Shown one piece after another: positions 1 to 50,818 of a stretch of 64,000 nucleotides of DNA (positions within the stretch are counted from its first letter, which is position 1; each line of letters begins with the position of its first letter). The notes beneath the pieces are model-generated. The model saw nothing but the letters and a program-made list of their open reading frames with translations, did not search any database and was not told the DNA's origin. A program made the position numbers and the translations under genes. The stretch comes from Acanthosoma haemorrhoidale (taxonomy: Eukaryota; Arthropoda; Insecta; Hemiptera; Acanthosomatidae): the NCBI GenBank assembly GCA_930367205.1, contig OV884012.1, positions 51,171,239 to 51,235,238 of the forward strand. The letters are read 5' to 3'.

Positions 1-473
1 GGAAGTCGGCATTGGTTTCTTCCAGGTATTTAACTATCGCTCGATAAGTATCGGGAGTGTCCGGCGAAGTTTTTGTATCCCGAGAGCGATTAAGGCACAT
101 ATATTTTCCGGTATCTACAATTTAGCTCGTTTGAGAGCATAATAATTTGAATTTGCTAATATTCCTTACGAATATAGCAGGTGGCTTGGGCTGTGTTGGT
201 GTTTTAATAACTTTCATGTCATCAGGTTGGCTATTTCTTAGTACCTCGAAGCTATCAGGCGTGAAGACTGGAGATTCAGCTGCTGTTTGTTCTTTTGAAG
301 TGCTGGCAAGTCATGGTAGGTCTTCCATAGAGCTGGTGGCAGATGAATTTATTGGGATGTTCCTATTTGATCTTCTAGGCTTTCGCTTTACAGGCGATGG
401 GTTCGAAGTTGGCCCTAAAGACCTTGTTCTTTTTTTTTTTATTATCAGACATGAGCTGTTGATAAAATCTCAT
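1..473 (-). pseudogene. LINE ORF1 (gag-like nucleic-acid-binding protein), N-terminal part, broken
   Basis: The - strand reading starts at an ATG at 473-471 and begins MRFYQQLM, exactly the start of ORF1 in the intact LINE. A lysine/arginine-rich stretch and the TPTQPKPPAIFVRN motif follow, as in the intact protein. An in-frame TGA falls after about 55 codons, in the region matching MEELPS of the intact copy, so the protein is not made. ORF1 proteins of jockey-type LINEs bind the element RNA. This copy is inactive. Agreement of the start between two diverged copies supports the ORF1 start used at 50380. Confidence 0.7.
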
Positions 474-6275: not shown

Positions 6276-6603
6276 GTAAAATACAATGGCCAGTTTCTCC
6301 AAACATACCCTGAGCGTCTGTGACTCTCTCACTCAAAGTCAGCCTCCACTGGCTCGTATCTGGTGACAGCGTTGATGGAGGAGCGTGGGGGGACTTCCAA
6401 AGACTCTGCTTCCTCTTTTGCAAGAGTGAGAAGTGACAAAGATGTGAATTGGGAGTTCTCTGGGGTGTTTGGGGTGTTGTAAATACTGTATGAATGAGTG
6501 AGTGAATGAAGAATTGCATATGGTATCAATGAAACATTGATCACAGTTATTTATTACCCAATATTATACAGATTATATTTCATCACAATAAAGATACTTA
6601 TAT
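6276..6603 (+). mobile_element. LINE 3' untranslated tail (+ strand), 5'-truncated
   Basis: The + strand carries the 3' untranslated region of the jockey-like LINE family. It begins at a GGCCAGTTTCTCC block, passes a GCCTCCACTGGCT block and a GAGGAGCGTGGGG block, and ends in a TTATTACCCAAT ... CAATAAAG tail that corresponds to the hairpin-plus-AATAAA end of the other copies. The hairpin is degraded here. The two overlapping - strand open frames (6226-6519, 6329-6544) are antisense to this tail and are not genes. The next element fragment follows directly at about 6612. Confidence 0.7.
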
Positions 6604-6611
6604 TTGTTAAT

Positions 6612-7340
6612 CGTCAAATGCCATGATAGTCAGGCATATGGGCACACAAAATCGTACTGTCACCACACTCCCAGGTGTGTAAAGTGCAGTGGGCAGCACA
6701 AAAGTGAATTGTGCAAGACGCTCCTGAAATTGAGCGCAATGTGCGTTCTCTGCCATCAAGGCCACCCGTCCAACTATAAGGGCTGCGAGGCTTATAGAAT
6801 CCTAAAGTCCAGGAGTGAGCATCGTCGTCGGCCAGAACAGAAGGAAGAAGAAGCGGCGCCGCCCGAAATTTGAGGTTTTCGGTATCTTTTGCTGACGCAG
6901 TTCGGAACAGAGAGCAGTCACAGGCACTGCCGTCCGCAAGTTCCTCTTCGACAGCATTCCGTTCATCCATTCATTCACACAACCGGCAAACCCAATCCCA
7001 TCCTCAACTACAAATCTGGCATTTTCCTCTACCTTCAAGCTCTTTAGATCTCACTAGCCTATTAACATAATTCCTTACAGAATTAAGAACCCTAATTACC
7101 CTTCTCATTTCCCTTTTTAGAAATCTTGTCTCCTACCTTATCCCCTCAAACAAAATCCATAAGTTAATGTTTCCGACACTTTATCTCCTTTGGAATGCGA
7201 ATAGTGTTAGCATCCGAACTGACAGCACTACTCCACGACACGAACACCGACGTAGCTCTCATTACTGAAACAAGACTTACGACTAACGACCATTTACATT
7301 TCGATAGTACCAGCCTTATCAAAATGACCACCCACGGCAT
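6612..7340 (+). pseudogene. LINE fragment: ORF1 zinc knuckles, ORF1/ORF2 junction and start of ORF2
   Basis: On the + strand this encodes the three CCHC-type knuckles of ORF1 (GHTKSYCHH, CVKCSGQHKSELC, CVLCHQGHPSNYKGC), then the proline/serine-rich tail of ORF1 with frameshifts. The ORF1 stop TAA is at 7160-7162. The first part of the ORF2 endonuclease follows (LWNAN-like, then DVALITETRL). The copy is truncated at its 5' end inside ORF1. Similarity stops near 7340, where gypsy sequence begins. It is useful because it preserves the same CCATAAGT junction as the intact LINE at 49040, with no in-frame AUG at the start of ORF2. Confidence 0.82.
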
Positions 7341-25589: not shown

Positions 25590-28509
25590 TAGTATAATTC
25601 CTTTATTGTGCAATAATTACAATCTGCCTTTTATAAGGCAATAAGTAATTAAGATATATGCTCTCATTCATACAATATTTACAGTTCATTATTTACTCGC
25701 TCATTCATACAATATTTACAGTTCATCATTCACTCGCTCATTCATACAATATTTACAGACAGCCCAGAGACCCCCCAAATCCACCGCAAAGAGAAAGCGG
25801 AGTCTTGGGAAGTCCCCCACGCTCCTCCATCAGCCGCGTCACCGGATACTAGCCAGTGGAGGCTGACCAAGAGCGCGAGAGCCACAGACGCTCAGAACAT
25901 GATTGGAGAGACTGGCCAATGCCAGGACTCCCACTGTCACGCGTTTATAGCAGGTCACGAGGCCACTGCCGTTTCAGTCTCCGAGGAGGATTATAGGGAT
26001 GAGTGGCGCAGTGCATTGACTGTGCTACAGGATTAGGGTGGTTGGAAAGGCTACTGTGGAATTTCGTAAACTTGGAAGGGATGAGTTCTAGAATGTAGGG
26101 TATATTAAGGTCGTTATGAAGGGTTTCGTTGCTGCCATAATAAGGGGAATTACTATTGTTCTCAGGACTTTTGATTGAAAGGATTGGATACGCTTCATGT
26201 TCGACTTTTTTGCTGTCCCCCATAGTATCCGTATGTCCAGATTGGTTTAAATATAACTTTGTAGATTAGTAGTTTATTTTCTATTGAGAGATGGGATGTC
26301 CTTTGAAGTAGTCTGTACAGTTGTTCAAAGCGTCTGTTTAGTTCTTGTCTTTTTAGTCTCGTATGTGGATCCAGGTCAGTCGTTTGTCAAGATGGAAGCC
26401 TAAGTACCGTACTGTCTCGGATACAGGGAGAGGAATAGAATTAAAATAAACTAGTGGACCAGACTTGTGACAAAGGGTGAAGGTAATGTGGGGGCATTTT
26501 GCTTCATTAACTTTGATACGCCATTGATTGCACCAATACTCGATCTCGTCAAGGTGTTTTTGAAGGTTATGGGATGCTATGTCGGGGTATGGATGGGATG
26601 ACAAGACTGCAGTGTCATCTGCAAATGTGGCCAAGAAGGTATTGGGAGTAGAGGGGACATCAGCGGTGTATAGGTTATAGAGGATGGGGCCTAGGACACT
26701 GCCCTGTGGAACTCCTGCAATTATGGGATAGTAGTTAGAATATTCTAAACCACAGCGGACTTGGAAGAAGCGGTTTGAAAGGTTAGGAAAAGGGTCTGTG
26801 GTAAATATCTTTTGAGCTTGTAGAGCAAACCTGCGTGCCAAACCCTGTCAAAAGCTTGAGCTATATCGAGAAAGGCAGCAGTGCAATACTGTTTGGTTTC
26901 AAGGGCTGAGGAGATGTGATCAACAACGCGAAGGCCTTGTTGAGCAGTGGAATGTCGTTGGCGGAAACCAAACTGGTGTGAGGGAAAAAGGTTTTTGGAT
27001 TCAACAATGGGAAGCAGACGTTTTAGTAGGAGTTTCTCAAATATTTTTGAGAGGATAGGGAGTAGGCTAATTGGACGATAAGATGAGGCGTCATTGGGTG
27101 GTTTACCGGGTTTGGCGAATAGGACAATAATGGAATGTTTCCAGAGGAGAGGAAAGTGCGTCGTTCGGATTATGCAATTATATATGTAGGTTAGGAAGAT
27201 TATGGCTTTAGGAGGAAGTTGTTTGAGAATTTGAGGAGTAAGGAGATCATATCCAGGGGATTTTCGGTAAGGTAAGTTTTTCAGAAGGTATTTAACCTCA
27301 GAAGGGTTAACGGCTTTTGGTGGAAGAGAGAGAGGAATAGGTGAAGTGAGGAAATCTTCCACAGTTGTGCTGTGAGTATGGCTTTGATGAGAAAGGTGAG
27401 GTGTGAAAGTATGGGTAAGATGCAGAGCAAATTCCTCCGACCTATCCGAAGCCGCCCAGGACCCATTATCACGACGGAGTGGGTGTGAAACAGGTTGATA
27501 CTTTAGGATTTTTTTGGTTACGTTCCACAAGGAGTTATCCCTGGTGGACAGAGAGGAGAGGTAGGAATTGAAAGAATCGGAGCGGAAGGATGCCAATCGC
27601 CGCTTTACCAATCGGCAGTACTGATTGTACGTGCGACGATCAATAGGATGCCGGGATCTTTGCCACACTGTTCTGGAGCGGCGTTTGGATTGGATTAGAT
27701 CTTTGAGATGCTGAGGTAAACGATTATGATTGTGGATTTTTGTGTGACGATGGGGTGACGATGCCTCCCAAGCCGACCTCTGGACCAGAGTAGTGAAAGA
27801 ATGCACTGCATCGTCTAGGTCTTGGGATGTTTTCAGGGATAATTTGAGGTTTATGGACTCTGTAAGAAGCTGACGGAAGTGGTCCCAGTCAACTGGGCCC
27901 CTAATAAATGAAGGAGGAGGCAGTTTGTGAATTGGTCTTAGGGAAATGGTTAATAATAAAGGGCTATGATCGGAGGAAAGGTCATCGAGGCGCTTGAGTG
28001 AATAGTTTAGTGTTCCTAAACTATTGTAAAAAAAGAAGTCAAGGAGATCAGGATTTCGGTTGGGATCTGATGGCCAATAGGTGGCTGTGTCAGGAGTGAT
28101 AGTGGAGCAATGTTTCCTTGTGAGTGCAGTATCTGCAGTATTTGTGGATCTTGACCCCCAGTGTTGGTGCTTCGCATTAAAGTCCCCACCAACAAGGAAA
28201 CGATGTCCGATGGAGTCTAGAAAGGAGATGAATTGGGAGTCGGAAATGGATTTATTGGGAGGGCAGTACGTTGATGCAAGTGTAAGAGGAAAAGTGAAGG
28301 TGGTGATTGACACTGCAGTGGATTGAGGGAAATCATGTGATACCAAAGGAACTATGTGGTGGGATATGGAGTAATGGACAATGACAGCGGTACCTGCATG
28401 AGCTGTTCCATCTGGGTGATCAGTACGATAAGTCTGGTACTGTCGAACGGTAAATGGTCGTTTGCTCGTAAGTCTTGTTTCAATATATATTATATTTTAG
28501 CTCTATAAA
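25590..28509 (-). mobile_element. 5'-truncated jockey-like LINE with 12 bp target-site duplication
   Basis: A - strand copy of the same family as the intact LINE at 45988-50806. It keeps most of ORF2 and the 3' tail, and similarity ends near 28482 within the first part of the endonuclease. About 27 bp of unrelated AT-rich sequence lies between that point and the duplication. The 3' end is TGCCTTATAAAAGGCA, then TTGCACAATAAAGG and ATTATACTA, without a poly(A) run. This differs from the poly(A)-ended intact copy. ORF2 is frameshifted. Truncation at the 5' end with a duplication is the signature of target-primed reverse transcription. Confidence 0.9.
26030..28482 (-). pseudogene. LINE ORF2 (endonuclease-reverse transcriptase), truncated and frameshifted
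   Basis: The reading starts inside the endonuclease and is open from 28346 to 26745 with GGDFNAKHQHWG, SDHSPLLL, then RT motifs (RPISLLPILSKIFEKLL, QFGFRQRHSTAQQ, FLDIAQAFDRVWHAG). A frameshift at about 26750-26840 moves it to another frame, which holds GVPQGSVLGP and the catalytic FADD. A second break occurs near 26353, and the C-terminal part is in 25945-26223. The 533-residue open part contains no methionine except an artificial first residue (TTG), just as in the intact copy. Not functional. Confidence 0.88.
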
Positions 28510-39547: not shown

Positions 39548-39929
39548 AATATTTAATTTAATGGGGTATATAGCATGGCGTTCAAACAAATTGGCAACGG
39601 CTATGGTACATTACTAATTAAAACTCAATGGGGTTTCTAATGACCAACGCCAACAGTGCTCTCCTAGGCAGGCTCGCGGTTAGTTCCATCATCAATAATA
39701 CAGTGGCCTTCACATGAGTCCAAGAGGTGTCATCGTTTCCACGTCCATCGAGAAATTGTCCCTTCTTTTTCACCTTGGGCAGAAGCCGTGTAAGAGGAAG
39801 AAGCATAGTTCCTATTTGTTTACCTATAATCATATATCGGTCTCGGGACATGGAAATCTCACCGGACACTCCCGATGCATATCAAATATTTGTAAGAATT
39901 CTATACCGACTTCGATACATAACAACTGA

Positions 39930-40391
39930 AACAAGAACGATCGTTACGAGTAGTGATCAGAAATCTGCATCCAACCACACCAGCTGATGAAATTGAAGAC
40001 GAACTGTCAGCTCTCGGATTCAATGTTCACCAAATAACGAATGTTATACACGAGGAGAGCCAACCAGAGGAATCAGTCAAAACGGCGTTACCTTTCTTCT
40101 TCGTAGATCTTGAGCGAACGCCTGGTGTGGAAAAAATCTACTAACTGACGCACTTGTATTACACTTAAATACAGGTCGAAAGCCGTACCCCAAACGCGAC
40201 ATCCAGTGCCATAACTGCCAGGTATATAGGCACACAAAATCGTACTGCAACCACCTTCCGATCTGTGTAAAGTGCATTGGGCAGCTCAAAAGTGAATTGT
40301 GCAAGAAGCCCCTGAAATCGCATGCAGTATGCGTTCTCTGCAATCAGGGCCACCCGGCCAACTATAAGGGCTGCAAGGCTTACAAAATCCC
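39930..40391 (+). pseudogene. LINE ORF1 fragment with PRE_C2HC-like region and zinc knuckles
   Basis: Contains VIRNLHPTTPADEIEDEL, LPFFFVDLERTPGVEKIY and the three knuckle segments, in slightly altered form and partly in different frames. ORF1 binds element RNA. A stop follows KIY near 40141 and a frameshift occurs between that point and the knuckles. Confidence 0.75.
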
Positions 40392-41175
40392 TTTGGACTT
40401 CTTCCAAGTCCGCTGTGGTTTAGAATATTCTAACCACTATCCCATAAAATCAGGAGTTCCAGAGAGCAGTGTCCTGGGTCCCATCCTCTATAGCATATAC
40501 CCCGCCGACGTCCCCTCTACCCCCAATACCTTTTTGGCCACATTTGGAGATGAAACTGCAGTCTTGTCATCCCACCCAGACCCCGATATAGCATCCCATA
40601 ACCTTCAAAAACACCTTGACGAGATCGAGTATTGGTACAACCAATGGCGGATCAAAGTTAATGAAGCAAAATTTTCCCACATTACCTTCACTCTCTGTTG
40701 CAAGTCTTGTCTACTAGTTTATTTTAATTATATTCAACTCCGTGTATTCAAGACAGTACGGTACTTGGCTTCCATCTCGACAAACGACTGACCTGAAACC
40801 CACATACGAGGCTAAAATGACAAGAACTAAACAGACACTGTGGACAACAGTACAGGCTACTTCAAAGGACATCCCATCTCTCAATAGAAAATCAATTACT
40901 AATTTACAAAGTTATACTTAAGCCCATCTTGACATACGGAATAGAGCTATGAAGGACAGCAAAAAAGTCGAACATCAAGCGCATCCAATCCTTTCAATCT
41001 AAAGTCCTGAGAACAATAGTGAATGCCCCTTATTATGTCAGCAAAAAAACCCTTTATAACGATCTTAACATACCATACATTCTTGAACTCATCCTTTTCA
41101 TGTTTATGAAGTTCCGTAGTACCCTATCCAACCACCCTAATCCCGTAGAACAGTCATTGCACTGCGCCACTCACT
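40392..41175 (+). pseudogene. LINE ORF2 fragment (C-terminal RT half)
   Basis: RT from the FFQVRCGLEYSN segment onward. The catalytic FADD of the intact copy is FGDE here, and GVPQGSVLGP reads GVPESSVLGP. The frame from 40297 to 40791 joins the last zinc knuckle to the RT piece without a stop, giving a 164-codon chimeric frame. Further down come VNAPYYVS-like and DLNIPYILELI segments. Inactive as polymerase. Confidence 0.8.
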
Positions 41176-44858: not shown

Positions 44859-44867
44859 TGGTCACTT

Positions 44868-45233
44868 AATCCTCCTCGGAGACTGAAACGGCAGTGGCCT
44901 CGTGACCATGCTATGTCCTGGCAACGGCCAGTTTCTCCAATCATGTCCTGAGCGTCTGTGGCTCTCACGCTCTTGGTCAGCCTCCACTGGCTAGTATCCG
45001 GTGACGCGGATGACGGAGGAGCGTGGGGGACTTTCCAAGACTCCGCTTTCTCTTCGCATGTGGATTTGGGAGGTCTCTGGGCTGTCTGTAAATATTGCAT
45101 GAATGAGCGAGTGAATGATGGACTGTAAATATGGTATGGTATGAATGAGAGCATTTATCTTATTACTTATTGCCTTATAAAAGGCAGATTGTAATTATAG
45201 CACAATAAAGGAGTATATCAATATCAATATCCT
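44868..45233 (+). mobile_element. LINE 3' tail (+), 366 bp, with 9 bp target-site duplication
   Basis: Carries the end of ORF2 and the 3' untranslated region of the jockey-like LINE (ACGGCAGTGGCCTCGTGACC, GGCCAGTTTCTCCAAT, GCCTCCACTGGCT, GAGGAGCGTGGGGG). It ends with the hairpin TGCCTTATAAAAGGCA and CACAATAAAGGAG. TGGTCACTT at 44859-44867 is repeated at 45234-45242. The - strand open frame 44702-45154 is antisense to this tail and not a gene. Confidence 0.8.
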
Positions 45234-45975: not shown

Positions 45976-45987
45976 CCTAATATAATT
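45976..45987. repeat. Target-site duplication (left) of the full-length LINE
   Basis: CCTAATATAATT, repeated exactly at 50807-50818. Its final TT merges with the element's poly(T) (the poly(A) tail read on the + strand). Confidence 0.88.
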
Positions 45988-46009
45988 TTTTTTTTTTTTT
46001 TTTTTTTTT

Positions 46010-46348
46010 AATTTTTCAAACAATTTTATTAAGATAAAATTACAATCTGCCTTTTATTAGGCAATGAGTAATTGAGATAAATGTCATCATTCATACTATA
46101 TTTACAATTCATCATTCACTCGCTCATTCATACAATATTTACAAACAGCCCAGAGGCCCCCCAAGTCCACAAGGGTCACCTCCCTCACATGCGAAGGAGG
46201 AAGCGGAGTCTTGGGGAGTCCCCCACACTCCTACGTCAGCCGCGTCACTGGATAAGCCAGCGGAGGCTGACCAAGAGCGCGAGAGCCACAGACACTCAGG
46301 ACATGATTAGAGGAACTGGCCATTGCCAGAACTCCCACTATCACTTAG
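46010..46348 (-). other. 3' untranslated region of the full-length LINE with terminal hairpin
   Basis: The 3' untranslated region shares blocks with the tails at 6276, 25590 and 44868 (GCCTCCGCTGGCT-like, GAGTGTGGGGGACTC-like). Near the end, read on the - strand, TGCCTAATAAAAGGCA can form a 5 bp stem. GATTGTAATTTTATC and AATAAAATTG follow before the poly(A) tail. The position and pairing of the stem are kept in other copies with changed loop sequence. Confidence 0.75.
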
Positions 46349-49039
46349 TTATAGCAGGTCACGAGGCCACTGCCGTTTTAATCTCCGAAGAGGATTATAG
46401 GGGTGAGTGGTGCAGTGCAATGACTGTGCTAGGGAATTAGGCTGGTTGGATAGGTTACTATGGAATTTTATGAACTTGGAAGGGATGAGTTCAAGAATAT
46501 GGGGTATATTCAGATCATTGTGAAGGGTTTTGTTGCTGACGTAATAAGGGGCATTTACTATTGTTCTTAGGACTTTTGATTGAAAGGATTGGATGCGCTT
46601 GATGTTCGACTTTTTTGCTGTCCCCCATAGCTCTATTCCGTATGTCCAGATTGGCTTAAGTATAACCTTGTAAATAAGTAGTTTGTTTTCTATTGAGAGG
46701 TGGGATGTCCTTCGAAGTAGTCTGTACAGTTGTCCAAAGCGTCTGTTTAGTTCTTGTCTTTTTAGCCTCGTGTGTGGGTTCCATGTCAGTCTTTTGTCGA
46801 GATGGAAGCCTAAATACCGTACTGTCTCAGACACAGGGAGAGGAATTGAATTTAAAAAGACTGGTGGACAGGACTTGCGGCACAGGGTAAAGGTTATGTG
46901 GGAACATTTTCCTTCATTGACTTTGATTCGCCATTGGTTGCACCAATACTCGATCTCGTCGAGGTGTTTTTGAAGGTTTTGGGATGCTATATTAGGGTCT
47001 GGATGGGTTGACAGGACTGCAGTGTCGTCTGCGAATGTTGCCAAGAAGGTATTGGTGGTAGAGGGGACATCAGCGGTGTATAGATTATAGAGGGTGGGAC
47101 CCAGGACGCTGCCCTGTGGAACTCCTGCTTTAATGGGATAGTAGTTAGAATATTCTAAACCACAGCGGACTTGGAAGAAACGGTTTGAAAGGTAGGATTG
47201 TAGGATTAGGAATAGGGTTTGCGGTAAATATCCTTTGAGCTTGTAAAGCAAGCCTGCGTGCCAGACCCTGTCAAAAGCTTGAGCTATGTCCAGAAAGGCA
47301 GCAGTGCAATACTGTTTGGTTTCAAGGGCTGAGGATATGTGATCAACAACGCGAAGGCCTTGTTGAGCTGTGGAATGTCGTTGGCGGAAACCAAACTGAT
47401 GAGTAGGGTAAAGGTTTTTGGATTCAACAATTGGAAGTAGGCGTTTTAATAGGAGTTTTTCAAATGTTTTTGAGAGGATAGGGAGTAGGCTAATTGGACG
47501 GTAAGATGAGGCGTCATTGGGTGGTTTACCGGGTTTGGCGAATAAGACAATAATGGAATGTTTCCAGAGGAGAGGAAAGTGCGTCGTTCGGATAATGCAA
47601 TTATATATATAGGTTAGGAAGATTATGGCTTTAGGAGGAAGTTGTTGGAGGATTCGAGGAGTAAGGAGATCATATCCTGGAGATTTTCGGTAAGGTAATT
47701 TTTTCAGAAGATATTTAACCTCGGAGGGGTTAACGGCGTTTGGTGGTAGTGAGAGAGGGATAGGTGAAGTTAGGAAATCTTCAACAGTTGGACGGTGATT
47801 ATAGTTTTGAGGAGTAAGATGAGGAGTGAAAGTATGGGAAAGATGCAGTGCAAATTCCTCCGCCCTCTCGCCATCCGAAGCCGCCCAGGACCCATCATCA
47901 CGACGGAGTGGGTGTGAAACAGGATGGTATTTTAGGATTTTCTTAGTTAGATTCCATAAGGAGTTGTCCCTGGTAGACAGGGAGGAGAGATAGGAATTGA
48001 AAGAATCGGAACGGAAGGATGCCAATCGCCGCTTTACCAGCCTGCAGTACTGATTGTATGAGCGACGATCAGCAGGATGTCGGGATCTTTGCCACACTGT
48101 TCTTGAGTGGCGTTTGGATTTGATTAGGTCTTTGAGATACTGAGGTAAAGGATTTTGATTGTGAATTTTTAGGTGACGGTGGGGTGACGATGCCTCCCAG
48201 GCCGACCTCTGGATCAGAGTAGTGAAGGAATGCACTGCATCGTCTAGGTCTTGGGATGTTTTCAGAGGTACTTTGAGGTCTACAGAGTCTGTAAGAATCT
48301 GGCGGAAGTGGTCCCAGTCAACTGGGCCCCTAATAAATGAAGGAGGAGGCAGTTTGTGAATTGGATTTAGGGAAATGGTTAATAATAAGGGGCTATGGTC
48401 GGAGGAGAGGTCATCGAGGCCCTTGAGTGAATAGTTTAGTGTTCCTAAACTATTGTAGAAAAAGAAGTCAAGGAGATCAGGATTTCGGTTGGGATCAGAT
48501 GGCCAATAGGTGGCTGTGTCAGGAGAGATAGCGGAGCAATGTCTCCGTGTGAGTGCAGACAGCAAAGCACGTCCTCGTGTATTTGTGGATCTTGAGCCCC
48601 AGTGCTGGTGCTTTGCGTTAAAGTCCCCACCCACAAGGAAACGATGCCCGATGGAGTCTAGAAAGGAGATGAATTGGGAATCGGTAATGGATTTATTGGG
48701 AGGGCAGTACACTGATGCTAGAGTAAGGGGAAAAGTGAGGGTGGTGATTGACACTGCAGTGGATTGAAGGAAATCATGTGCTACCAAAGGAACTATGTGA
48801 TGGGATATGGAGTTATGGACAATGACAGCGGTACCTGCATGAGCTCTTCCATCTGGGTGATCAGTTCGATAAGTCTGGTACTGACGAACGGTAAATGGTC
48901 GTTTACTTGTAAGTCTTGTTTCAGTAATTAGAGCTACGTCGATGTTTTTGTCATGGAGTAATGCTGTCAGTTCGTTAGTGTGGGTGCGAACACCATTCGC
49001 ATTCCAAAGGAGAATGGATAAGGAGTCAGAAGGATCCAC
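46349..49039 (-). CDS. LINE ORF2: endonuclease-reverse transcriptase
   Basis: Nicks target DNA and reverse-transcribes element RNA at the nick. It is an 896-codon open frame. The N-terminal apurinic-like endonuclease has LLWNANG, TETRL, YCPPN, GGDFNAKHQHWG and SDHSPLLL. RT has RPISLLPILSKTFEKLL, QFGFRQRHSTAQQ, FLDIAQAFDRVWHAG, GVPQGSVLGP and the catalytic FADD. The C-terminal part has YLGFHLDKRLTW and KLLIYKVILKPIWTYG. The first codon after the ORF1 stop is GTG, and there is no ATG codon in this frame anywhere, so AUG initiation is impossible. It must be made by readthrough of the TAA, by reinitiation at a non-AUG codon, or otherwise. No frameshift or stop. The + strand frames inside it are shadows. 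Confidence 0.95.
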   Translation of the reverse strand: MDPSDSLSILLWNANGVRTHTNELTALLHDKNIDVALITETRLTSKRPFTVRQYQTYRTDHPDGRAHAGTAVIVHNSISHHIVPLVAHDFLQSTAVSITTLTFPLTLASVYCPPNKSITDSQFISFLDSIGHRFLVGGDFNAKHQHWGSRSTNTRGRALLSALTRRHCSAISPDTATYWPSDPNRNPDLLDFFFYNSLGTLNYSLKGLDDLSSDHSPLLLTISLNPIHKLPPPSFIRGPVDWDHFRQILTDSVDLKVPLKTSQDLDDAVHSFTTLIQRSAWEASSPHRHLKIHNQNPLPQYLKDLIKSKRHSRTVWQRSRHPADRRSYNQYCRLVKRRLASFRSDSFNSYLSSLSTRDNSLWNLTKKILKYHPVSHPLRRDDGSWAASDGERAEEFALHLSHTFTPHLTPQNYNHRPTVEDFLTSPIPLSLPPNAVNPSEVKYLLKKLPYRKSPGYDLLTPRILQQLPPKAIIFLTYIYNCIIRTTHFPLLWKHSIIVLFAKPGKPPNDASSYRPISLLPILSKTFEKLLLKRLLPIVESKNLYPTHQFGFRQRHSTAQQGLRVVDHISSALETKQYCTAAFLDIAQAFDRVWHAGLLYKLKGYLPQTLFLILQSYLSNRFFQVRCGLEYSNYYPIKAGVPQGSVLGPTLYNLYTADVPSTTNTFLATFADDTAVLSTHPDPNIASQNLQKHLDEIEYWCNQWRIKVNEGKCSHITFTLCRKSCPPVFLNSIPLPVSETVRYLGFHLDKRLTWNPHTRLKRQELNRRFGQLYRLLRRTSHLSIENKLLIYKVILKPIWTYGIELWGTAKKSNIKRIQSFQSKVLRTIVNAPYYVSNKTLHNDLNIPHILELIPSKFIKFHSNLSNQPNSLAQSLHCTTHPYNPLRRLKRQWPRDLL

Positions 49040-50380
49040 TTATGGATTTTGTTTAACGGGGATAAGGTAGGAGACAAGATTTGTAAGAAGGGAAATGAGA
49101 GGGGTAATTAGGGTTCTGAACTCTGTAAGGAATGAGGTTAAAAGGCTGGTGAGATCTGAAGAGCTTGAAGGTGGTGGGATATGCGAGATGTGTGGTTGAG
49201 GATGGGATTGAGTTTGCTGGTTGACGGGAAGAACGGAGTGCTGGGGAAGAAGAACTTGCGGAGGAGGAGTGGGCAATGCCTGTGACTGCTCTCTGTTCCG
49301 AACAGCGTCAGCAAAAGATACTGAAGGCCTCAAACTTCTGGCGGGGGCGCTTCTTGGGCTGCCTGTGGCTGGCGTTTCTTCTTCAGGACGACTACGTTGT
49401 TCGCTTCTGGACTTCAGAATTCTATATGCCGCACAGCCTTTATAGTTTGCCGGGTGGCCTTGTTGACAGAGCACGCATACAGCAGGTGATTTTAGGGGCT
49501 TCTTGCACAATTCGCTTTTGTGCTGCCCACTGCACTTTACACACCTGGGAGGGTGGTAGCAGTATGATTTTGTATGCCCATATGCTTGACAATTATGACA
49601 TTGAACTATATCGCGTTTCGGGTAAGGCTTTTCGACCTGGACTCTTGTGTAATACAAGTGGGTGACCTCGTAGATTTTTTCCACTCCAGGTGTTCGCTCT
49701 AGTTCCACAAAGAATAAGGGCAGTGGTGTCTTGATTTTTGCATTATTTTCTTGTGTTTCCTCACGGAGCACATTTGTAATTTGGCGAACCTTGTATCCTA
49801 GGCTTAAGAGCTCCTTCTCTATCTCGTCCGCTGGTGTAGTGGGATGCAGGTTTCTAATCACCACCCGCAGCGATCTTTCTTGCTTTAATTGGTAGGTATG
49901 AAAGTCGGCCTTTGTCTCATCTAAGTATTTGATTATTGTACGGTATGTGTCCGGAGTGTCCGGAGAAACCTTTGTGTCTCGGGCCCGATTGAGGCAAGTG
50001 TATTTCCCTGTACCTACAATTTTATTTAGTTGGGTACATAGTAATTTAAAATTACCAATGTTTCGTACGAATATTGCCGGTGGCTTGGGCTGTGTGGGTG
50101 TTTGTGTAGAGTCCATGTCCTCTACCTCAATATTTTTCAACACCTCGTAACTATTGGGCGTGAAAAACGGAGACTCATGAGTTTTTGTTTGTTTAGATGT
50201 GCTTGGTAGTGATGGTAGTTCCTCCATAGAGCTGCTGGGAGCTGAAGAATTGACAGGAGGTATGTTTCGGTTAGATCGCCGCGGCTTACGTTTGACCGGC
50301 GACGAAGTGGGGATAGGTCCCAACGACCTTGTGCGTTTTTTCTTATTCTCTGCAGACATTAACTGCTGATAGAAACGCAT
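49040..50380 (-). CDS. LINE ORF1: RNA-binding gag-like protein
   Basis: 446 residues, from ATG at 50380-50378 to TAA at 49042-49040. The start MRFYQQLM is conserved in the copy at 1-473; a second in-frame ATG follows seven codons later. The N-terminal part is basic and serine/proline-rich. The middle has an RRM- or PRE_C2HC-like region (VVIRNLHPTTPADEIE, LPLFFVELERTPGVEKIY). Three cysteine knuckles lie near residues 260-310 (CHNCQAYGHTKSYC, CVKCSGQHKSELC, CVLCQQGHPANYKGC). The tail is proline/serine-rich. Jockey-group ORF1 proteins coat the element RNA and carry it to the nucleus. Methionines occur only in roughly the first 95 residues. Confidence 0.94.
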   Translation of the reverse strand: MRFYQQLMSAENKKKRTRSLGPIPTSSPVKRKPRRSNRNIPPVNSSAPSSSMEELPSLPSTSKQTKTHESPFFTPNSYEVLKNIEVEDMDSTQTPTQPKPPAIFVRNIGNFKLLCTQLNKIVGTGKYTCLNRARDTKVSPDTPDTYRTIIKYLDETKADFHTYQLKQERSLRVVIRNLHPTTPADEIEKELLSLGYKVRQITNVLREETQENNAKIKTPLPLFFVELERTPGVEKIYEVTHLYYTRVQVEKPYPKRDIVQCHNCQAYGHTKSYCYHPPRCVKCSGQHKSELCKKPLKSPAVCVLCQQGHPANYKGCAAYRILKSRSEQRSRPEEETPATGSPRSAPARSLRPSVSFADAVRNREQSQALPTPPPQVLLPQHSVLPVNQQTQSHPQPHISHIPPPSSSSDLTSLLTSFLTEFRTLITPLISLLTNLVSYLIPVKQNP

Positions 50381-50806
50381 GTTTCATCAGCAGTATTTTT
50401 CTGAATTATTCAGTATTTTTTAAAAAAAAAATAAATAAAAAAAATATATGGCAAGGGGTAGCCGCGAACGCACGTAACTAAGTTGAGAGCGTCCCTCGCT
50501 AGCACCTGGCTGAGATGCTATGAGGGCTTTGCGGACTCCCCACTCTTATCTCTACTACGGCTGGCAGTTGGCCTAGGCAATATGGCCGCCTTTGCTGTGT
50601 TATGTGAGGTGAATCTTGCTATTGGCAATCTAGTCCACAACTCCACTATCCACTCACCTGTAGATAGCTCCTCCGGGGACCGTTCACCCAGTAGCCGGTT
50701 GAGACGGTTTGACGAACTGGACACTTCCTATGAACGGTAACAAAACAGTTGGTTTATAGAGCGATACGAAAACGTTATGCAGTGGTTTAGCGCAGGCGCA
50801 GTACTC
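50381..50806 (-). promoter_or_regulatory. 5' untranslated region / presumed internal promoter of the LINE
   Basis: The 426 bp between the 5' end of the element and ORF1 are richer in GC than the flanks apart from an A/T-rich stretch next to ORF1. Non-LTR elements of this group carry an internal promoter at their 5' end; the function here is inferred, not seen. The stretch is partly conserved in the copy at 474-870. The short frames at 50483-50740 on both strands are not convincing genes. Confidence 0.5.
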
Positions 50807-50818
50807 CCTAATATAATT
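50807..50818. repeat. Target-site duplication (right) of the full-length LINE
   Basis: CCTAATATAATT, identical to 45976-45987. Confidence 0.88.

What the first reader, a model, noticed from the sequence alone, without database searches (positions are those of the whole stretch)
46349..49039. A LINE reverse-transcriptase ORF with no methionine codon at all
Reading the ORF2 frame end to end, none of its 896 codons is ATG; the first codon after the ORF1 stop is GTG. A protein of this size would normally have well over ten methionines. The truncated copy at 26745-28346 also has none over 533 codons. In the intact element the same frame is free of ATG from about residue 95 of ORF1 to the end of ORF2, about 1,240 codons. 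Out-of-frame ATGs do exist in ORF2, for example the ACATGA opposite 48774-48779, so the depletion looks specific to the coding frame. Hypothesis: selection removes internal in-frame start codons because ORF2 must be made only as a continuation of ORF1 or by non-AUG initiation, and internal starts would give harmful truncated RT. The element's neighbours (gypsy pol) use Met normally, so this is not a genome-wide composition effect.
Basis: seen in the sequence. Interest (0 to 1): 0.88.

Follow-up and report, generated by a model that had tools for sequence, protein, structure and literature searches.

The report
Jumping gene without ORF2 start codon
A recently active insect jumping gene (LINE) has a second gene, for its copying enzyme, that contains no AUG start codon at all, so the enzyme must be made without an AUG start of its own; the missing methionines themselves look like the low end of a methionine-poor enzyme family rather than a purge of start codons.

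Summary
In detail: the 896-codon ORF2 (46349-49039, minus) has no in-frame ATG, while out-of-frame ATGs match codon shuffles. It belongs to a young jockey-like LINE family. In 51 of 51 copies (window plus 50) the ORF1 stop TAA is followed directly, in the same frame, by GTG. Of 40 further copies read through ORF2, 37 have no in-frame ATG and 3 have one private ATG each. ORF2 is under purifying selection (dN/dS 0.16). Full-length ORF2 therefore cannot start at an AUG of its own: either UAA is read through or ribosomes restart at GUG.

The proposed reason for the missing methionines, a purge of internal starts, is not supported. Relatives whose ORF2 appears to begin with its own AUG are equally methionine-poor (0, 0, 2). 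Methionine is scarce across the clade of 15 (mean 2.7); a zero has probability 0.067 under that clade's own substitution process. New mutations to ATG appear at the neutral rate (3 seen, 2.3 expected).

Interest lies in the family-fixed AUG-less junction, a natural counterpart of what was shown by mutation in mammalian L1.

The parts
50807..50817 (-). 5' copy of the 11-bp target-site duplication (ATTATATTAGG on the element strand)
   Evidence: the same 11 letters follow the poly(A) at 45976-45986
50381..50806 (-). 5' UTR, 426 nt, only one ATG (position 420, 7 nt before the ORF1 ATG)
   Evidence: 25 of 40 fetched copies reach within 5 bases of the same 5' end
49040..50380 (-). ORF1 (446 codons plus TAA): jockey-type protein with PRE_C2HC; ATG codons 1, 8, 52, 89 only
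   Evidence: Pfam PF07530 E 1.5e-11
49034..49042 (-). ORF1/ORF2 junction TAA GTG GAT, same frame, no spacer
   Evidence: TAA GTG in 40 of 40 fetched copies, in 10 of 10 further copies and in the window copy
46349..49039 (-). ORF2 (896 codons plus stop): endonuclease and reverse transcriptase, no in-frame ATG
   Evidence: Pfam PF03372/PF14529 and PF00078; dN/dS 0.16 against the 25701-28485 copy
46010..46348 (-). 3' UTR
45986..46009 (-). poly(A) tail (T run on the + strand)
45976..45986 (-). 3' copy of the target-site duplication (last base shared with the poly(A) run)
25701..28485 (-). 5'-truncated copy, 89% identical; 2 ATG in register with ORF2 codons 813 and 874
39906..41174 (+). internally deleted copy, 76-87% identical; ATG in register with ORF2 codons 855 and 857
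6284..7334 (+). older, decayed copy (74-80%) that covers the junction: CCATAAGTTAATGTTTCC, i.e. TAA then GTT in frame; a 5-base gap a few codons on puts the out-of-frame ATG of that stretch in frame with the endonuclease

Best explanation
This is a young, multi-copy jockey-like LINE family whose ORF2 protein is expressed without an AUG start of its own. Most likely ribosomes that finish ORF1 at UAA restart at the adjoining in-frame GUG (termination-coupled, AUG-independent reinitiation), a change from an ancestral stop-start overlap in which the ORF2 AUG overlapped the ORF1 stop (AUGA). The absence of internal methionines is a separate, inherited property of a methionine-poor RT lineage that has drifted to zero here. 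Shown: no in-frame AUG, family-wide TAA-GTG junction, constraint on ORF2, recent spread. Inferred: the ancestral AUGA junction, and reinitiation rather than readthrough.
For: TAA-GTG in 51 of 51 copies (window, 40, 10); 37 of 40 with no ORF2 ATG, 3 with one private ATG each (8 of the 40 have one or two stops in ORF2). 13 of 40 have both frames open without indel, 11 of them with zero ORF2 ATG; 25 of 40 have the full 5' end and 33 of 40 a duplication of 7 bp or more by an automatic match, so this arrangement has been copied. ORF2 dN/dS is 0.16 over 841 codons against the 25701-28485 copy, 0.25 over 255 and 0.37 over 55 against two older copies; variants shared by two or more copies give 0.42 in ORF2 and 0.29 in ORF1 (18 each). 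The start is boxed in: columns W12 and N13 are invariant in the alignment of 25 (window plus 24 relatives), the frame upstream is closed by the TAA, so a start must lie in codons 1 to about 11, which hold no ATG. Ancestral coupling: in the clade of 15, 13 of 13 relatives whose start could be read (of 14) have a second residue that an A-starting codon can encode (N, T, S, I), as an overlapping ATGA requires; 19 of 20 (of 24) in the clade of 25; elsewhere 51 of 129. The nearest ORF1s end in NP-stop, compatible with CCA TGA. [quoted passage not shown] passages of PMC5972666 describe stop-start reinitiation in SART1 and a proposed termination-reinitiation for L1.
Against: No protein or ribosome data. 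ORF1 and ORF2 share a frame, as UAA readthrough needs. The one older copy that spans the junction has GTT, not a usual start, in place of GTG; it is decayed, and because of a 5-base gap an ATG four bases after its TAA reads into the endonuclease, so that copy could also be taken to have had an AUG start. No structure stands out near the junction (z -0.25 downstream, 0.59 upstream), whereas SART1 needs a downstream structure (passage). The relatives' start codon is written Met by gene callers that may also write Met for GTG and TTG (general knowledge), so the ancestral AUG rests on the second-residue pattern and on Ranatra and aphid gene models.
Confidence: 0.5

Rival explanations
1. UAA readthrough: ORF2 is made only as the C-terminal part of an ORF1-ORF2 fusion, like a gag-pol protein.
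For: Same frame, stop only, no spacer, in 51 of 51 copies; the older spanning copy keeps the same frame for the first eight codons after TAA although its first codon is GTT.
Against: No downstream structure above shuffles; UAA is, from general knowledge, the least leaky stop; the inferred ancestral junction in relatives had ORF2 in another frame.
Confidence: 0.3
2. One reading: selection removes in-frame internal AUGs because truncated RT is harmful.
For: Zero ATG in ORF2 with normal out-of-frame counts; three of the four members of its subclade have zero, total 2: simulation P 0.010 (clade of 25) or 0.041 (clade of 15) for a total of 2 or less, and 0.06 or 0.144 for three or more zeros anywhere in the clade. 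Raw Met counts are lower in proteins with the inferred overlap-type start (6.8 against 8.8, P 0.001).
Against: Neutral rate of new ATGs and 2 against 2.36 expected in the 89% copy; no link of Met count to start type on contrasts (P 0.56) or outside the clade of 25 (P 0.22); ORF1 relatives keep Met; near-cognate CTG is used 17 times; zero has P 0.067 under the clade's own process.
Confidence: 0.12
3. Chance at the low end of a compositionally Met-poor family; nothing specific to start codons. (Concerns the Met count only and can hold together with either start mechanism.)
For: Met falls with Gly+Glu+Val+Ala+Asp content (rank correlation 0.59 over 117 proteins); G is rare on the sense strand (third position 0.118); clade mean 2.7, P of at least one zero among 15 is 0.41.
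Against: A regression on amino-acid composition still predicts 5.7 Met for this ORF2, the lowest residual of the 117; the subclade of four is low with P 0.01-0.04. This explains the Met count and not the AUG-less junction.
Confidence: 0.6
4. ORF2 is reached by splicing or by an internal ribosome entry site.
For: Would allow any start; dicistrovirus intergenic IRESs start at non-AUG codons (starts of abstracts listed).
Against: 161 nt before the junction are almost unstructured (-2.7 kcal/mol); the only Rfam match up to E 0.1 is below its gathering score and on the other strand. Splicing was not tested: no transcripts were available.
Confidence: 0.07

Closest known systems
Jockey-like LINEs of Hemiptera (best hit named for an insect: Ranatra chinensis; aphid models; a contig filed under Pantoea sp. 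Taur)
   Same: ORF1 with PRE_C2HC, ORF2 endonuclease plus RT, 44-73% identity in the alignment of 25
   Different: Their ORF2 is called from a Met at or next to the position where this family has GTG
SART1 (silkworm) stop-start UAAUG reinitiation
   Same: ORF2 begins at the ORF1 stop; coupling to termination
   Different: SART1 has an AUG in the overlap and needs a downstream structure (passage and reference title in PMC5972666); no AUG and no structure above shuffles here
Mammalian L1, ORF2 start codon replaceable
   Same: ORF2 does not need AUG (passage of PMC1965478; the original paper was not held)
   Different: There by mutation and with a 63-nt spacer; here natural, family-wide, without spacer and with no internal AUG
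Zorro3 (Candida)
   Same: Two-ORF non-LTR element
   Different: Its first ORF2 ATG is required (passage of PMC1965478)

Membership tests
Non-LTR retrotransposon (LINE), APE type | Endonuclease and RT domains in one ORF, motif residues kept | tested here: met
   PF03372, PF14529, PF00078 above cut-off; invariant columns N13, E40, D139, N141, S213 D214 H215 and A670 D671 D672 (their catalytic role is recalled); best solved relatives by sequence are L1 ORF2p chains
Non-LTR retrotransposon (LINE), APE type | Poly(A) tail and target-site duplications, frequent 5' truncation | tested here: met
   11-bp duplication; 33 of 40 copies with 7 bp or more, 25 of 40 with full 5' end
Jockey lineage | ORF1 of the jockey type (abstract of PMC4120745: all Jockey-lineage elements share one ORF1 type) | tested here: met
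   PRE_C2HC in ORF1; 401 ORF1 homologues found, the 120 listed carry PF07530. That this domain marks the type is recalled; the same abstract says a jockey-like ORF1 also occurs in CR1 and L2 lineages
Jockey lineage | Placement of ORF2 in a tree with named reference clades | not tested
   no named reference elements were in the tree
Stop-start (UAAUG/AUGA) reinitiation element | ORF2 AUG overlapping or adjoining the ORF1 stop | tested here: not met
   TAA GTG in 51 of 51 copies
Stop-start (UAAUG/AUGA) reinitiation element | Downstream RNA structure as in SART1 | tested here: inconclusive
   z -0.25 for 163 nt: none above shuffles, but a single-sequence fold without covariation test
Stop-readthrough (gag-pol type) element | Fusion product detected | not testable with these tools
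   needs proteomics or reporters

The most novel reading that the evidence does not exclude
A naturally AUG-free ORF2: an active LINE family has replaced an AUGA stop-start overlap by UAA-GUG in one frame and makes its RT by AUG-independent reinitiation or UAA readthrough, with no AUG downstream in its ORF2 that could rescue it. It would be a natural, genome-wide replicated test of the AUG-independent ORF2 translation known from engineered L1.
Probability: 0.75. Interest if true: 0.65.

Novelty: new variant of a known kind. Interest (0 to 1): 0.5.

Why it matters
How L1 makes its second protein is called an unconventional and poorly understood process (passage of PMC5821460). Where an ORF2 AUG or internal AUGs exist, several explanations stay open. 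Here none exists, so any full-length ORF2 protein must come from readthrough or from a non-AUG restart within about eleven codons (unless the mRNA differs from the DNA), and one reporter construct would tell which. It also warns that gene finders that demand ATG will miss or misplace such an RT.

Tried and rejected
Purge of internal ATGs: tested by neutral expectation among copies, by simulation on trees, by start-type contrasts and by ORF1 relatives; not supported, though the subclade of four is somewhat low. A private start-codon mutation of the window copy (my first reading, note) was rejected once 40 of 40 and 10 of 10 further copies showed GTG. A depletion stronger near the 5' end of ORF2: 11 of 98 Met in the first two eighths in the clade of 25 against 212 of 1,137 in the other 134; not tested further. 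Conserved C-terminal Pro of ORF1 as a stalling signal: 20 of 120 ORF1s end in P, mostly the nearest; not general. IRES or ribozyme: one sub-threshold Rfam match only. DNA of relatives: none in viral contigs; only nine distant contigs (L001-L009) in genome contigs; one distant hit in plasmids with P0003; phages and E. coli genomes were not searched. Junctions of older subfamilies in this genome could not be fetched: the genome search answered once and was otherwise busy. Script one search stopped with an error at its last comparison (the 1-473 copy); the rows printed before it are used. Rows dropped: the tree used 158 of 178 ORF2 proteins (860-930 aa) plus the window; start-type counts leave out models that begin inside the protein or not with Met. 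No structure prediction or fold search was run.

Full report
What is there. The minus strand of 45986-50806 is a complete two-ORF LINE: 426-nt 5' UTR, ORF1 (446 codons), ORF2 (896 codons), 3' UTR, poly(A) and an 11-bp target-site duplication. ORF1 carries PRE_C2HC and ORF2 an endonuclease and a reverse transcriptase. The nearest proteins are a contig filed under a bacterium, unnamed metagenome contigs and elements of Hemiptera; the nearest solved structures by sequence are L1 ORF2p. The window is part of an 865.6-Mb assembly in 72 contigs with no name given; an insect host, probably a hemipteran, is my inference from the relatives.

The observation. There is no ATG in the 896 codons, and the last in-frame ATG of ORF1 is codon 89. 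Other frames hold 17 and 5 ATGs, as codon shuffles do (16.6 and 7.5). Composition predicts 6.3-7.9 in frame, about 4.6 after correcting by the gypsy pol frames (18 seen of 31.8 and 17 of 28.6 expected). So the deficit is in-frame, real and moderate.

The family in the genome. The genome search scored 51 full-length places including the window copy, 98-100% identical in protein; it calls such counts lower bounds. I read 40 of the other 50 with ORF1 and flanks and the junctions of the remaining 10. All 50, and the window copy, have TAA directly followed by GTG in the same frame. Of the 40, 37 have no in-frame ATG in ORF2; L022, L049 and L057 have one each, at different codons (585, 600, 445); 8 have one or two in-frame stops in ORF2. 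Thirteen of 40 have both frames open with no indel, 11 of them without any ORF2 ATG. Twenty-five of 40 have the full 5' end and 33 of 40 a duplication of at least 7 bp by an automatic match that can be fooled by simple sequence. The family has spread recently with this junction.

Is ORF2 used? Against the 89% identical copy at 25701-28485, ORF2 has dN 0.045, dS 0.282 and ratio 0.16 over 841 codons; two older copies give 0.25 over 255 and 0.37 over 55 codons. Variants shared by two or more copies give 0.42 in ORF2 and 0.29 in ORF1 (18 variants each, so rough); singletons give 0.63 in ORF2 and 1.19 in ORF1. ORF2 is a protein under constraint.

Why this excludes an AUG start. W12 and N13 are invariant in the alignment of 25 ORF2s, so a working endonuclease needs a start before them. 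Upstream the frame is closed by TAA. Codons 1-11 hold no ATG, nor does any later codon of the window copy. What is left is readthrough of UAA, restart at GUG (or at the ATT of codon 9), or an mRNA different from the DNA. The first two were not separated by anything I could compute: the folds at the junction are at shuffle level and Rfam shows no element there.

Where the junction came from. Relatives are called from a Met at the place of this GTG, for example MNPSD against VDPSD. In the clade of 15 the second residue is N, T, S or I in 13 of 13 readable cases (of 14), and in 19 of 20 (of 24) in the clade of 25, against 51 of 129 elsewhere that fit an A-starting codon. With ORF1s ending in NP-stop this points to CCATGA, an ORF2 AUG overlapping the ORF1 stop. 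The window family has CCATAAGTG, and an 80% identical older copy at 6617-7334 has CCATAAGTT. Its first eight codons after the TAA (VNVSDTLS) match VDPSDSLS in the same frame, so the change probably predates their split. That copy is a weak witness: it is decayed, and a 5-base gap after those codons puts an ATG four bases behind its TAA in frame with the endonuclease, so it could also have had an AUG start.

Methionine poverty. Internal Met counts in the 120 best relatives run from 0 to 17; P0001, P0002 and P0003 (72-73% identity) have 2, 0 and 0. On a tree of 159, the clade of 15 around the window has a mean of 2.7 and the 134 outside the clade of 25 a mean of 8.5. Simulating 1,000 alignments under the clade of 15's own process gives P(zero here) 0.067, P(some zero among 15) 0.41, P(three or more zeros) 0.144 and P(at most 2 in the four nearest) 0.041; under the clade of 25 these are 0.018, 0.27, 0.06 and 0.010. 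A composition regression leaves the window ORF2 with the lowest residual of 117 (-5.7, SD 2.6). So the subclade is somewhat poorer than its surroundings, and zero is within reach of drift. Only five columns hold Met in at least 20% of the 134 outside relatives, and here they are A, L, L, F and L. ORF1 keeps Met beyond residue 95 in four of the five nearest relatives (P0121-P0124, not P0125), which removes the 1,240-codon run as a shared trait.

Test of the purge idea. If in-frame ATGs were harmful, new ones should be scarce in copies that still spread. Among 198 singleton variants of ORF2, 3 make ATG where 2.34 are expected; among 18 shared variants none does, where 0.21 are expected. Older copies: ORF2 2 seen of 2.36 expected, 2 of 1.26 and 0 of 0.21; ORF1 0 of 1.41 and 1 of 0.60. 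Singletons are mostly post-insertion, so this rules out a mutational bar rather than all selection; the shared set has no power. Raw Met counts are lower with the inferred overlap-type start (6.8 in 71 against 8.8 in 79, P 0.001), but not outside the clade of 25 (8.1 against 8.8, P 0.22) nor on tree contrasts (-0.06, P 0.56).

Literature seen. Passages of PMC5972666, PMC1965478, PMC5821460 and PMC2881922 (a reference entry only); outline and abstract of PMC4120745; listings. In those listings I saw no report of a LINE ORF2 without AUG; the library holds open-licence papers only, and from general knowledge R2 elements are discussed as lacking a usual start, which I did not verify.

Verdict. The causal story about methionines does not, as far as these data reach. 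The unremarked part, a family-wide AUG-less UAA-GUG junction in a recently active LINE, is the point of interest.

Noticed in passing
50381-50806 (-): The 426-nt 5' UTR has a single ATG, 7 nt before the ORF1 start and in another frame, as expected of a leader scanned from the cap.
   Followed up: no
44867-45209 (+) beside 45986-46348 (-): A second 3' end of the same family lies inverted next to this copy, giving arms that are 85-93% complementary with 0.8-1.4 kb between them.
   Followed up: no
1-473 (-): An ORF1 fragment of a 70% identical subfamily keeps the same four N-terminal ATG codons as the window element.
   Followed up: partly
P0121-P0240 (ORF1 relatives): The nearest ORF1 proteins end in NP or P before the stop (20 of 120 end in P), whereas many others end in ND, NE or NK, which could fit AATGA-type overlaps with the ORF2 start.
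   Followed up: partly
P0001, P0134: A contig filed under the bacterium Pantoea sp. Taur carries this insect LINE (ORF1 and ORF2 proteins, longest contig 7,455 bases for both), probably host DNA in a symbiont assembly.
   Followed up: no
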